From: Lutibacter sp.
GTDB lineage: Bacteria > Bacteroidota > Bacteroidia > Flavobacteriales > Flavobacteriaceae
DNA: 59,388 bases
Assembly (NCBI GenBank): GCA_018054895.1
Contig: JAGPIQ010000004.1
Span: 1-59,388 of the forward strand
Reading direction: 5' to 3'
The first letter of the stretch is position 1. Each line of letters begins with the position of its first letter. The position numbers and the translations under genes are program-made. The notes under the pieces were generated by a model. The model was given only the letters and a program-made list of their open reading frames with translations. It did not search any database and had not been told where the DNA came from. This document shows positions 2,560-32,547 of this stretch, piece after piece.

Positions 2560-3066
2560 ATGGATATATTTTTACTTTTACTCGGAATACTTTTTACCTT
2601 AGCGGGTGTTTTAGGAGCAATTCTACCTATTCTTCCTGGTCCAATTTTATGTTGGATTGGCTTATTACTACTACATTTAACCTCCATAATTCCAATGGAT
2701 TATGTTTTTTTAGGAATTACGTTGGCTATTTCAATTTTTGTAATAATAATTGATTATCTAATTCCCGCTATAGGAACTAAAAAATTTGGTGGTTCTAGCT
2801 ATGGAGTTGCAGGAACAACAATTGGATTAGTGTTAGGAATCGTATTCTTCCCGCCTTTTGGAATTATAATAGGTCCATTTATTGGCGCATTTATTGGTGA
2901 AATGATCTATGATAATTCCAATCCAAACCGCGCTTTAAAAGCTTCTTTTGGCTCATTTATTGGTTTTTTAACTTCAACTTTACTAAAATTTGTGGTTGCT
3001 CTCATTTTTACAGGACTTTACTTTAGCATTTTTTGGGAAAATAAAAGTCTGTTTTTCAACTTCTAA
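2560..3066 (+). CDS. DUF456 family integral membrane protein
   Basis: The 168 residues are almost wholly hydrophobic with about five membrane segments. The N-terminal part carries the DUF456 pattern, with the helix-breaking stretch LPILPGPILCWIGLLLLH, and the middle has glycine-rich helices (GTTIGLVLGIV, GPFIGAFIGE) of the glycine-zipper kind. Length is normal for the family, whose function is unknown. A frame-shifted shadow begins 16 bases upstream and was discarded because this frame carries the family motifs. The ATG lies only about 4 bases after TATCTTTA (2549-2556), so the mRNA may be nearly leaderless. The gene faces lysS across the small RNA locus. Confidence 0.85.
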   Translation: MDIFLLLLGILFTLAGVLGAILPILPGPILCWIGLLLLHLTSIIPMDYVFLGITLAISIFVIIIDYLIPAIGTKKFGGSSYGVAGTTIGLVLGIVFFPPFGIIIGPFIGAFIGEMIYDNSNPNRALKASFGSFIGFLTSTLLKFVVALIFTGLYFSIFWENKSLFFNF

Positions 3067-3087: not shown

Positions 3088-3186
3088 AAAAAAAGCGTCC
3101 CGGTATTCGGGAAGCTTTCCATTGGTTTACAAGACCACGACGTAATTAAACGTCAAACAACACAACTAAATCGCTTTCGAAGCGAT
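3088..3186 (-). ncRNA. Candidate small RNA with own promoter and terminator, divergent from lysS
   Basis: Read on the minus strand, about 100 nt begin just after a strong promoter (3190-3218). They contain a 5' hairpin (3171-3185, arms TCGCT/AGCGA), a middle hairpin (3139-3154, arms GACGT/ACGTC) and a terminator-like 3' hairpin (3093-3117). The last has outer arms AAGC/GCTT and inner arms TCCCG/CGGGA, and is followed by seven T residues (3088-3094). No ORF of useful length fits. It could be the Flavobacteria-enriched Flavo-1 RNA or an unnamed sRNA, since my recall of the Flavo-1 consensus is not good enough to assign it. It could also be a long leader, but transcription would end in its own terminator before any gene. 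Confidence 0.65.
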
Positions 3187-3189
3187 ACA

Positions 3190-3218
3190 CAAATATATAA
3201 ATTTTTATTTGAAAACAA
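3190..3218 (-). promoter_or_regulatory. Promoter of the small RNA
   Basis: On the minus strand TTTG (CAA on plus at 3216-3218) is followed by an 18-base spacer and TATATTTG (3190-3197). This is one of the best matches to the Bacteroidetes -33/-7 form in the window. Initiation is expected at about 3183-3187, right at the first hairpin. Confidence 0.65.
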
Positions 3219-3248
3219 ATTACAAACACTTTTTCTTTCTAAATTACC

Positions 3249-3313: not shown

Positions 3314-5014
3314 ATGCAATTATCACCACTTGAAATAATTAGAAGAGAATCATTACAAAAACTTCGTGATTTAGGTATTAATCCATATCCTGCTGAGGAA
3401 TTTAAAACAACCACTACCATTAAGAAAATAATGGATGATTTTGATGCTTATGAAGGCAAAGAAGTTGTGCTGGCTGGTAGGATGATGAGCCGTAGAATAA
3501 TGGGGAAAGCTTCTTTTGCTGAGTTAAAAGACGCTAGTGGAAGAATGCAAATTTACATCAATAGAGATGAGATTTCTACGGATGAAGAAGGCACTATGTA
3601 CAATACCGTATTCAAAAAATTATTGGATATGGGTGATATTATTGGTATTAGAGGTGAAGTTTTTAAAACAAAAGTAGGTGAAGAATCTGTAAATGTTAAA
3701 GAACTAACCGTTTTAGCAAAAAGTTTACGTCCGTTGCCTGTGGTAAAAACAGATGCAGACGGAAAAGTACACGATGCTTTTGCAGATAATGAGCAACGTT
3801 ATAGAAGACGATACGTTGATTTAATTGTAAACGACCACGTAAAAGAAACTTTTATTAAACGTACAAAAATCACCAATTCAATGCGTGATTTTTTCAACAA
3901 ACGTGATTATTTAGAAGTTGAAACTCCAATTTTACAACCAATTCCGGGTGGAGCGGCTGCGCGTCCGTTTATGACGCACCATAACGCATTGGACATGCCT
4001 TTGTATTTGAGAGTAGCAAACGAATTGTATTTAAAACGATTAATAGTTGGTGGTTTTGATGCCGTGTATGAGTTTGCTAAAGATTTCAGAAATGAAGGAA
4101 TGGACAGAACGCATAATCCAGAATTTACGGTGATGGAATTGTACGTGGCTTATAAAGACTACAATTGGATGATGAATATGACTGAAGAATTGTTGGAGAA
4201 AGTATGTATGGATACCAATGGAAGCAGCGAAGTTCCTATTGGTGACAATATGGTAAGCTTTAAAGCACCGTACCCAAGAGTTCCTATTTTAGAAGCCATA
4301 AAAATTCATACTGGTTATGATGTTGCTGGTTTGGGTGAAGTTGAACTTCGTGAAGTTTGTAAAAAAGTAGGCTTAGAAGTTGATGAAACAATGGGCGTTG
4401 GAAAGTTAATTGATGAATTATTTGGTGAAAAATGTGAGCACCATTACATTCAACCTACATTTATTACAGATTACCCGAAAGAAATGAGTCCTTTAACCAA
4501 AGAACACCGAACAAACCCTGCGTTAACAGAACGTTTTGAGTTGATGGTAAACGGAAAAGAATTAGCAAATGCGTATTCTGAGTTGAATGATCCTATTGAC
4601 CAAAAAGAACGCTTTGAAGATCAGCTAAAATTAACTGAAAAGGGTGATGATGAAGCGATGTTTATAGATCAAGACTTTATTCGCGCGTTGGAATATGGAA
4701 TGCCTCCAACTTCGGGAATTGGAATTGGAATTGACCGTTTGGTGATGTTTATGACAAATAATGCATCTATTCAAGAAGTATTATTTTTCCCTCAAATGAA
4801 ACCTGAGAAAAAAGCACCTTCTGTAGAATTGAATGACGATGAAAAAGTATTGTTTGAAATGCTTAAAAAAGCAGAGAAAATTTTATTGAATGATTTGAAA
4901 AACGAAAGTGGCTTCAGCAATAAAAAATGGGATAAAACCTTAAAAGGCTTAACAAAACATAATGTTGCCAAAGTAAACAATACAGACGAAGGTTTGTTTG
5001 TTGAAATAGTTTAA
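3314..5014 (+). CDS. lysS: Lysine--tRNA ligase, class II
   Basis: The 566-residue protein charges tRNA-Lys with lysine in the cytosol. The N-terminal OB-fold anticodon-binding domain spans roughly residues 50-150. The class II catalytic core has motif 2 with FRNEG at 258-262 and motif 3 with GIGIGIDR ending at Arg475. The chain continues about 90 residues past motif 3, whereas typical bacterial LysRS is near 500 residues. The extra, Lys-rich tail has helical character and matches the long form I associate with Bacteroidetes LysRS. There is no Shine-Dalgarno site; the leader is A/T-rich, as usual here. It is monocistronic, with a promoter at 3249-3275 and a terminator at 5040-5071. Confidence 0.97.
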   Translation: MQLSPLEIIRRESLQKLRDLGINPYPAEEFKTTTTIKKIMDDFDAYEGKEVVLAGRMMSRRIMGKASFAELKDASGRMQIYINRDEISTDEEGTMYNTVFKKLLDMGDIIGIRGEVFKTKVGEESVNVKELTVLAKSLRPLPVVKTDADGKVHDAFADNEQRYRRRYVDLIVNDHVKETFIKRTKITNSMRDFFNKRDYLEVETPILQPIPGGAAARPFMTHHNALDMPLYLRVANELYLKRLIVGGFDAVYEFAKDFRNEGMDRTHNPEFTVMELYVAYKDYNWMMNMTEELLEKVCMDTNGSSEVPIGDNMVSFKAPYPRVPILEAIKIHTGYDVAGLGEVELREVCKKVGLEVDETMGVGKLIDELFGEKCEHHYIQPTFITDYPKEMSPLTKEHRTNPALTERFELMVNGKELANAYSELNDPIDQKERFEDQLKLTEKGDDEAMFIDQDFIRALEYGMPPTSGIGIGIDRLVMFMTNNASIQEVLFFPQMKPEKKAPSVELNDDEKVLFEMLKKAEKILLNDLKNESGFSNKKWDKTLKGLTKHNVAKVNNTDEGLFVEIV

Positions 5015-5203: not shown

Positions 5204-5770
5204 ATGTATACAATATTAAAAGAAAATCTTCAAAAAAGAAAAATTAACAACCATAAAATTGACTTAATTTGTACTTTTTTTAAATTTATAAAAACAAAAA
5301 GAAACGAAATTTTAGTTGATTATAATGATGTTTGTCAAAATTATTATTTTGTAAACAGAGGCTGTTTACGTCTTTTTACTATAAATAAAGAAGGCTTAGA
5401 AAACTCTCGTTATTTTGCTTTTGAAGGTAATTTCGGGACCGCATTACCAAGTTTTATTGATCAAAAACCAGCTTTAGAATTTCTTCAAACTATTGAAAAA
5501 TCAGAATTATTAGTAATAACACGAAACGATTTTTATTACTTGGTAGATACTATACCCGAATTCTCCGCAATTTATAGAGAAATTTTAGAATTAGGTTTTA
5601 TAAATGCACAACAGCGAATTTATGGTTTTCAAGGGTTAGATGCGCTTGAAAAAGTTAGTTGGACAATTAAAAATAGTCCTAAATTGTTATTACGAGTTTC
5701 AAATAAAATGGCAGCTTCTTATTTAGGAATGTCTCCTTCAACTTTAAGTAGAATGAAATCAAAATTATAA
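5204..5770 (+). CDS. Crp/Fnr-family transcription regulator
   Basis: This 188-residue protein has a cyclic-nucleotide-binding-like beta roll (about residues 25-115, with YYFVNRGCLRLF and the following FAFEGNFGTA) and a short C-terminal helix-turn-helix (MAASYLGMSPSTLSRMKSKL). This is the compact Crp-like form very common in Bacteroidetes, whose ligand is usually unknown. It lies just upstream of three same-strand genes (GlcG-like, HIUase-like, MFS) and is the obvious candidate to control them. A 10-base inverted repeat overlaps its stop codon and could be its terminator or its operator. The region before the ATG is A-rich with no Shine-Dalgarno site. Confidence 0.85.
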   Translation: MYTILKENLQKRKINNHKIDLICTFFKFIKTKRNEILVDYNDVCQNYYFVNRGCLRLFTINKEGLENSRYFAFEGNFGTALPSFIDQKPALEFLQTIEKSELLVITRNDFYYLVDTIPEFSAIYREILELGFINAQQRIYGFQGLDALEKVSWTIKNSPKLLLRVSNKMAASYLGMSPSTLSRMKSKL

Positions 5771-31659: not shown

Positions 31660-31668
31660 AACTGATTT

Positions 31669-31779
31669 TCTTCGGGGCAGGGTGCAATTCCTTACCGGCG
31701 GTATAGTCCGCGACTCCTTGAAAAAGGATTGATTTGGTGAAACTCCAAAACCGACAGTTAAAGTCTGGATGATAGAAGA
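31669..31779 (+). promoter_or_regulatory. FMN riboswitch (RFN element)
   Basis: All hallmark blocks are present in order: closing stem TCTTC/GAAGA, GGGGCAGGGTGCAATTCC, ACCGGCGGTATAGTCCGCGA, a variable hairpin (CTCCTTGAAAAAGGAT), GGTGAAACTCC, and ACCGACAGTTAAAGTCTGGA ending with TGATAGAAGA. FMN binding should favour the terminator that starts 8 bases later, shutting off ribB when flavin is plentiful. Confidence 0.97.
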
Positions 31780-31786
31780 AAAAAAA

Positions 31787-31875: not shown

Positions 31876-32547
31876 ATGAATAGTTTAAATTCATTTGGAA
31901 AAAACAGTAAAGAAAGAGTTGAAAATGCGGTTGAAAAATTAAAACAAGGTTTTGGAATTCTACTTGTTGATGATGAAAATCGAGAAAATGAAGGCGATAT
32001 TATTTTTTCTGCTGAAAAAATGACAGAAAAAGATATGGCCTTAATGATTAGAGAATGTAGTGGTATTGTTTGTATTTGTTTAACCGAAAAAAAATGTAAC
32101 AGTTTAGGTTTGAGACAAATGGTAGAGACAAATACAAGTAAAAATAAAACTGCTTTTACTATCTCTATTGAAGCTAAAAGCGGTGTTACTACGGGCGTTT
32201 CTGCTAAAGATAGATTAACAACAATAAAAACAGCCATACAAGAAAATGCAACACCTAAAGATTTATCAAGTCCTGGGCACGTATTTCCTTTATTAGCTCA
32301 AGAAAATGGAGTTTTTGCAAGGCGAGGTCATACAGAAGGAAGTGTGGACTTAATGAAAATAGCTAATTTAGGTGAGTATGCCGTTTTATGCGAATTAACA
32401 AATGAAGATGGAACAATGTCTAGGCTTCCAGAAGTTTGCCTTTTTGCAAAAAAACACAATATGACAGTTGTATCAATTGATGATATTTGCCAATATAGAG
32501 AAATGACTGAAAAAAAAGAAATAGCAATTGAAATGACTAATTCATAA
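31876..32547 (+). CDS. ribB: 3,4-dihydroxy-2-butanone 4-phosphate synthase
   Basis: The 223-residue enzyme converts ribulose 5-phosphate to 3,4-dihydroxy-2-butanone 4-phosphate and formate, one branch of riboflavin synthesis. The acidic Mg-binding loop [10 protein letters not shown] is at residues 32-41, and [11 protein letters not shown] carries the conserved His and Glu. Length fits a stand-alone RibB; there is no C-terminal GTP cyclohydrolase II domain, although many Bacteroidetes have fused RibBA proteins. Transcription is governed by the FMN riboswitch upstream, which fits a dedicated flavin-responsive copy. Confidence 0.97.

What the first reader, a model, noticed from the sequence alone, without database searches (positions are those of the whole stretch)
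3088..3218. Stand-alone small RNA candidate beside lysS with promoter, three hairpins and terminator
The minus strand carries a TTTG-18 bases-TATATTTG promoter. About 100 nt follow it, with a 5' hairpin, a middle GACGT/ACGTC hairpin and an intrinsic terminator with seven T residues. There is no ORF. Such compact design is rare by chance in AT-rich DNA. It could be the Flavo-1 RNA or a new flavobacterial sRNA family.
Basis: partly seen in the sequence, partly recalled or inferred. Interest (0 to 1): 0.72.

Follow-up and report, generated by a model that had tools for sequence, protein, structure and literature searches.

The report
Flavobacterial small RNA linked to tRNA-Asp
The window holds a small-RNA gene from a family found in most sampled Flavobacteriaceae; elsewhere it usually sits directly behind a tRNA gene, here it has its own promoter, and what it does is not yet known.

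Summary
In detail: minus strand 3219-3088 carries a TTTG-18-TATATTTG promoter, a ~100-nt RNA without a conserved frame, and an intrinsic terminator with seven T. It is not Flavo-1; no Rfam 15 family reaches its cut-off. The window is Lutibacter (contig-length matches); 36 of 38 Lutibacter genomes hold a strong copy, with compensatory changes in two hairpins. It belongs to a wider RNA family: 174 of 199 genomes of the window's family match, and all matches in order and phylum samples lie in that family (75 of 395; 30 of 296). Two sequence blocks hardly change; the hairpin between them keeps its fold while its sequence turns over (104 of 105). 62 of 116 rows and 57 of 80 places lie 6-105 nt behind tRNA-Asp(GTC), with 1 and 0 own promoter elements. 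47 rows, among them Lutibacter, Polaribacter and Tenacibaculum, lie beside lysS, 45 with a promoter element. Best reading: a trans-acting sRNA, elsewhere made as the tRNA-Asp trailer, here autonomous. Expression and base-pairing are inferred. The F. psychrophilum member might be the published Rfp18; not proven.

The parts
3190..3219 (-). promoter: TTTG (3219-3216), 18 nt, TATATTTG (3197-3190)
   Evidence: TAnn(n)TTTG found in 45 of 47 lysS-context rows against 1 of 62 tRNA-context rows
3088..3189 (-). small RNA gene (model R1 match, 109.8 bits; the window is in the training set)
   Evidence: 5' end inferred from the promoter, not measured
3170..3186 (-). 5' hairpin (AUCGC..GCGAU), sequence turns over within the genus
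   Evidence: 5 of 6 pairs with double changes
3156..3167 (-). exposed conserved stretch AGUUGUGUUGUU (proposed seed)
   Evidence: its UUGUGUUG core predicted mostly unpaired in 115 of 116 rows
3139..3154 (-). hairpin P2 (GACGU/ACGUC)
   Evidence: 4 of 5 pairs with double changes; hairpin of 4 or more pairs in 104 of 105 distinct segments
3123..3137 (-). hairpin P3 (UGGU/ACCA here; GGUUU..ARACC in the family)
   Evidence: (101 of 105 segments; the window's own is one of the four misses)
3088..3120 (-). intrinsic terminator; its AAAGC/GCUUU base is also strongly conserved in sequence
2560..3066 (+). DUF456 gene, convergent neighbour, also seen in part of the tRNA-context loci
   Evidence: Pfam PF04306
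3314..5014 (+). lysS-like lysyl-tRNA synthetase gene, divergent neighbour
Evidence: Pfam tRNA-synt_2 (class II D, K and N) and OB-fold domain.

Best explanation
3189-3088 (-) is the gene of a ~100-nt noncoding RNA with its own flavobacterial promoter (TTTG/TAnnTTTG type, recalled) and intrinsic terminator. It belongs to an RNA family found in most sampled Flavobacteriaceae. In most of the places examined the RNA is the downstream part of a tRNA-Asp(GTC) transcription unit and would be released when the tRNA 3' end is processed. In Lutibacter, Polaribacter and Tenacibaculum it is uncoupled from tRNA-Asp and carries its own promoter between lysS and the DUF456 gene. Because sequence and fold are kept in both settings, it most likely acts in trans as an RNA: an exposed, nearly invariant UUGUGUUG region presents a seed for pairing with mRNAs (or a site for a protein), with P2, P3 and the terminator as stabilising scaffold. 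Shown by sequence: conservation, covariation, contexts, presence or lack of the promoter element, lack of a frame. Inferred: transcription, co-transcription with tRNA-Asp, trans action, pairing.
For: 36 of 38 genus genomes with a strong copy. Double changes that keep pairs (9 of 23 pairs). 174 of 199 family genomes; all matches of R2 and R3 confined to the family in order (75 of 395), class (8 of 295) and phylum (30 of 296) samples. P2 fold kept in 104 of 105 distinct segments, on average 1.2% of shuffles as stable. Seed core mostly unpaired in 115 of 116. tRNA-Asp 8-105 nt upstream in 62 of 116 rows, 1 of them with TAnn(n)TTTG; lysS upstream in 47 rows, 45 with it, 27 of the 47 being Lutibacter loci. 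Of 80 places picked, 57 have tRNA-Asp 6-80 nt upstream, none with the element; in L318, L325, L331, L334, L349, L357 and L358 the gap is 6-7 nt, too short for a promoter. DUF456 lies convergently downstream in 39 lysS rows and in 16 tRNA rows (12-6626 nt away), which suggests that both settings are one locus.
Against: No expression data were seen. No recurrent target: 87 exact complements of the 12-nt seed stretch occur in 38 Lutibacter genomes, of which by my hand count 29 are the RNA gene itself and 58 are not, against 55 for the reversed control; among the 19 non-sRNA loci examined only one pair shares a gene neighbourhood. Conservation of seed and terminator sequence could equally reflect protein binding. 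In many tRNA-context loci a terminator-like hairpin stands between tRNA and RNA, so co-transcription there needs read-through. Promoters of another type were not excluded. In the family-wide alignment A3 helix P2 pairs in only 46% of cells, because hairpin lengths differ, and the number of pairs with double changes does not exceed shuffles (285 of 500 reach it). 25 of 199 family genomes gave no match.
Confidence: 0.62

Rival explanations
1. It is a protein-binding housekeeping RNA (a scaffold or sponge for an RNA-binding protein) rather than an mRNA-pairing sRNA.
For: Found in 174 of 199 family genomes, with two primary-sequence blocks kept (both blocks in order in 75 of 80 model-found places) and no recurrent 12-nt target complement.
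Against: The most conserved stretch is predicted single-stranded, as expected of a seed; no partner protein is known to me.
Confidence: 0.25
2. It is the Lutibacter counterpart of the published F. psychrophilum sRNA Rfp18, and regulates secreted proteases.
For: Rfp18 is described as widely conserved in Flavobacterium, strongly folded, newly found outside Rfam predictions, and predicted to pair in the 107-bp fpp2-fpp1 intergenic region (PMC9723704, abstract and passages). The F. psychrophilum member found here (L175) pairs with the 106-nt gap of a tandem that I take to be fpp2-fpp1 (one reprolysin match well over the cut-off, one at it), rank 8 of 283 gene starts.
Against: The paper places the pairing in the third stem-loop, whereas the best site here is the unpaired seed. 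Rank 8 of 283 is modest and the seven better gene starts were not studied. The other reprolysin-like gene starts, fpp2 included, rank 84, 192 and 248. Rfp18 coordinates are in supplements that could not be read. Rfp11, Rfp13 and Rfp15 are also conserved.
Confidence: 0.35
3. Cis element: a regulatory leader or bidirectional terminator for lysS or DUF456.
For: It lies in their intergenic region: lysS in 30 of 30 and DUF456 in 25 of 30 Lutibacter loci.
Against: It is read away from lysS, and its terminator ends before the convergent DUF456 gene. The same RNA occurs behind tRNA-Asp in 62 of 116 rows and 57 of 80 places. The long T run is on the minus strand only.
Confidence: 0.04
4. It is a short coding gene.
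For: The conserved block contains ATG in 177 of 183 rows and GTG or TTG in the other 6 (the pattern that chose the rows asks for NTG).
Against: The distances from this NTG to the T run and from seed to block are spread over all three frames; P2 changes length freely.
Confidence: 0.02

Closest known systems
Rfp18 sRNA of Flavobacterium psychrophilum (Guerin et al. 2021, PMC9723704; abstract, outline and passages seen)
   Same: Structured sRNA conserved in Flavobacterium, outside Rfam predictions; the predicted target region fpp2-fpp1 also pairs with the member found here
   Different: Identity not shown; reported pairing region is the third stem-loop; the passages seen do not say where Rfp18 lies
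Flavo-1 RNA (Rfam RF01705)
   Same: Structured RNA of Flavobacteriaceae
   Different: Different model; its two matches in this genome are at C248 and C2, none at this locus
3' external transcribed spacer of the E. coli leuZ tRNA operon (recalled; five papers holding the terms seen as a listing only)
   Same: An RNA with a trans function released from a tRNA transcript
   Different: Here a structured RNA of about 80-110 nt with its own terminator, kept across a bacterial family, and with its own promoter in some genera
tRNA-snoRNA dicistronic genes of plants (recalled, no call)
   Same: A noncoding RNA co-transcribed downstream of a tRNA
   Different: Unrelated RNA class and organisms

Membership tests
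Flavo-1 (RF01705) | covariance-model match at or above the gathering score | tested here: not met
   genome copies elsewhere
Any Rfam 15 family | match at or above gathering score | tested here: not met
   best was Phe_leader, 23.9 bits against 55; 20 relatives gave only tRNA and one separate Flavo-1 above cut-off, Phe_leader reaching at most 33.8 bits
Autonomous bacterial sRNA gene | own promoter element, intrinsic terminator, no conserved frame | tested here: met
Autonomous bacterial sRNA gene | a discrete transcript is made | not testable with these tools
   no RNA data held
tRNA-Asp-linked RNA family described here | R3 model match with UUGUGUUG and CCRAUGRRAAGC blocks | tested here: met
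   window 74.4 bits, E 1.4e-10; the window itself is in the training alignment
tRNA-Asp-linked RNA family described here | tRNA-Asp directly upstream | tested here: not met
   no tRNA in the window; lysS context instead. This is a context, not a sequence feature
Rfp18 | same locus in F. psychrophilum | not testable with these tools
   coordinates in supplements, for which no look-ups were allowed
Rfp18 | pairs with the fpp2-fpp1 intergenic region | tested here: inconclusive
   rank 8 of 283, different pairing region from the paper

The most novel reading that the evidence does not exclude
An RNA of nearly all Flavobacteriaceae is produced as the trailer of tRNA-Asp, so that its dose follows tRNA synthesis and growth rate. 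It acts in trans on many mRNAs through one nearly invariant 12-nt seed, and in the Lutibacter-Polaribacter-Tenacibaculum line it escaped from the tRNA unit by gaining its own promoter beside lysS.
Probability: 0.4. Interest if true: 0.78.

Novelty: new variant of a known kind. Interest (0 to 1): 0.62.

Why it matters
Few sRNAs of the Bacteroidota outside Bacteroides have been characterised (recalled). An RNA found in 173 of 198 sampled genera of one family, with no Rfam 15 entry, is a strong candidate for a core regulator or housekeeping RNA. Its two settings are a natural experiment: they separate the function of the RNA from the gene it rides on, and suggest how an sRNA can pass from a tRNA unit to an independent gene. 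The models and loci make it directly testable by Northern blot and deletion in laboratory Flavobacterium johnsoniae.

Tried and rejected
Flavo-1 and the other Rfam families: rejected.

A long-range helix between the two invariant blocks, proposed by RNAalifold for R2: rejected, since its pairs exceed 0.5 probability in 0 of 116 sequences while P3 does in 114. R2 was nevertheless built with that helix.

R1 matches outside the family in the order sample: 5 of 32 matching genomes, all weak (33-39 bits). Three were viewed (L088, L093, L096) and lack the motif; two (G280, G310) were not viewed. The weak extra Lutibacter matches of 38-41 bits look like ordinary terminators but were not examined one by one.

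Target search by exact 12-mer complement across 38 Lutibacter genomes: no recurrent gene. 30 of the 87 matches had loci; 19 of those were not the sRNA itself.

Whole-sRNA duplex folding against the fpp regions gave long implausible duplexes and was replaced by accessibility-weighted windows.

Peptide-coding reading: rejected. Paper searches for flavobacterial sRNAs with lysS or tRNA-Asp gave no paper, and with Lutibacter one unrelated paper; led to PMC9723704, and a passage of PMC9331221 names no Rfp. Only the held open-access library was searched.

Rows left out of the 116-row counts: I dropped L114 and L142 (odd-host MAG records), L124 (no such context) and L168 (cut), yet kept L148, a record with a similarly odd title; L033-L062 duplicate Lutibacter places (L049, a second Lutibacter genome found only, fell out with them); identical cores were merged; some true-looking members (L019, L066, L076, L077, L095) were missed by the text pattern. 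27 of the 116 rows are Lutibacter loci. In one search I picked the 80 places, one per genome, from the listed part; 13 of them failed the pattern, and 4 of the 67 kept cores are identical to cores of the 116, so the two counts are not fully independent. The 116 and 183 rows were chosen by a pattern that asks for the two blocks, so their conservation there is partly by selection; among the 80 model-found places 77 have the first block and 75 both in order.

Full report
What is in the sequence. On the minus strand TTTG at 3219-3216 is followed after 18 nt by TATATTTG at 3197-3190, then by an RNA of about 100 nt: 5' hairpin 3186-3170, unpaired AGUUGUGUUGUU 3167-3156, hairpin P2 3154-3139, a small hairpin P3 3137-3123, and a terminator hairpin ending in seven T at 3088. 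The single-sequence fold is better than 195 of 200 shuffles. The neighbours are a DUF456 gene (2560-3066 +, convergent) and a lysyl-tRNA-synthetase-like gene (3314-5014 +, divergent). Rfam finds nothing here above cut-off.

Genus. Three contigs of same-genus genomes have the same lengths as named Lutibacter contigs (G031:C228, G013:C1, G024:C22 against L157, L115, L108), so the window is taken as Lutibacter. BLAST with 166 bases found 40 of 60 relatives: all 37 of the genus (some by the terminator part only) and three weak hits outside it. A covariance model R1 from 27 loci matches 37 of 38 Lutibacter genomes: 36 at 79 bits or more, G014 weakly (40.8 bits), G015 not at all; both are incomplete. 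A lysS match lies beside the RNA in 30 of 30 loci L003-L032 and a DUF456 match in 25 of 30. In the 27-row alignment 9 of 23 pairs have double changes that keep the pair, in the 5' hairpin (5 of 6) and P2 (4 of 5); the 12 terminator pairs never vary. TATATTTG or TATCTTTG precedes the RNA in 29 of the 30 loci; L019 has TACATTTG.

Family. R1 also finds more distant copies, many of them downstream of tRNA-Asp. Models R2 (44 rows) and R3 (54 rows) were built without the 5' hairpin. R2 matches 174 of 199 family genomes, 146 of 164 good-quality ones (E up to 0.01, so a few may be chance). In the class sample 8 of 295 match (R2), in the order sample 75 of 395 (R3) and in the phylum sample 30 of 296 (R3); all rows with a match are in f1. 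The earlier order sample with R1 had 32 of 296 matches, 5 of them outside f1 and weak; the three that I viewed lack the motif.

Structure. Over 105 distinct segments between the two blocks, P2 is a hairpin of four or more pairs in 104, although the P2 stretches are nearly all different (104 distinct); P3 has four or more pairs in 101 (single-base shuffles, 30 each). The seed core is mostly unpaired in 115 of 116 ensembles. On alignment A3 with a structure I named, 81.0% of cells pair against 76.8% in shuffles (0 of 500), cells with double changes are 89 against 52.5 (0 of 500) and the covariation score 0.261 against 0.184 (0 of 500), but the count of pairs with double changes, 8, is no more than shuffles give (285 of 500); slid versions pair in 32-61% of cells. 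P2 is poorly aligned there (46% of cells).

Two settings. Among 116 distinct cores, 47 have lysS upstream and divergent, and 45 of these have TAnn(n)TTTG within 60 nt upstream (not L063, L169). Of the 47, 27 are Lutibacter loci; the named others are Lutibacter, Polaribacter and Tenacibaculum, plus two MAG records labelled Flavobacterium sp. (L116) and Flavobacteriales (L139). 62 have tRNA-Asp 8-105 nt upstream on the same strand, and 1 of these (L119) has the element. 7 have neither by these rules; of these L112, L137, L155 and L161 show the tRNA 3' end by eye. DUF456 is convergent downstream in 39 lysS rows and, within flanks of unequal length, in 16 tRNA rows at 12-6626 nt, which suggests that both settings are one locus. 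Of 80 places that I picked, 57 have tRNA-Asp 6-80 nt upstream, none with the promoter element; 23 do not, 9 of them with the element. Seven of the 57 have a gap of 6-7 nt. I infer that the RNA is usually part of the tRNA-Asp transcript and that the Lutibacter line has its own promoter instead. The direction of change rests on how common each setting is, not on a tree.

Function. The same RNA kept in two settings argues against a cis role for either neighbour and for a function of the RNA itself. It has no conserved frame. The exposed seed suggests base-pairing, but I found no recurrent target in Lutibacter: 58 exact 12-nt complements outside the RNA gene (my hand count) against 55 for the reversed control. 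In F. psychrophilum (L175, tRNA-Asp setting) the best predicted site begins in this seed region for 199 of 283 gene starts, and the gap of the tandem that I take to be fpp2-fpp1 ranks 8 of 283. That gap is a predicted target of Rfp18, whose deletion lowers fpp1 mRNA in stationary phase (PMC9723704, passages). The paper puts the pairing in the third stem-loop, so the link to Rfp18 stays a hypothesis.

Verdict. A well-supported sRNA gene and a member of a family-wide RNA not held in Rfam 15. The tRNA-Asp linkage and its absence beside lysS are the unusual part; expression and molecular action are open.

Noticed in passing
31664-31784 (+): FMN riboswitch (RF00050, 117.5 bits) about 90 nt upstream of a 223-aa gene at 31876-32547 that looks like a ribB-type riboflavin gene (by eye, no family search).
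   Followed up: partly
L070, L071, L105: tRNA-Asp plus this RNA occurs as a tandem duplicated unit in several genomes.
   Followed up: partly
G060:C157:1885-1988 and G060:C41:717-821: One Lutibacter genome has two strong matches of the RNA (108.7 and 106.7 bits); it could be an assembly effect or a real second copy.
   Followed up: no
L236:5830-5935 (F. psychrophilum): The 106-nt gap of the supposed fpp2-fpp1 tandem holds a terminator-like hairpin with a long T run just after the possible pairing site, which could uncouple the two genes (by eye).
   Followed up: no
L114, L142, L148: Records titled Nitrotoga, Rhizobium and Chryseobacterium MAGs carry the RNA downstream of tRNA-Asp and may be contaminated or mislabelled bins.
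   Followed up: no
window 5204-5770 (+): Gene with a cyclic-nucleotide-binding domain (PF00027) downstream of lysS.
   Followed up: no
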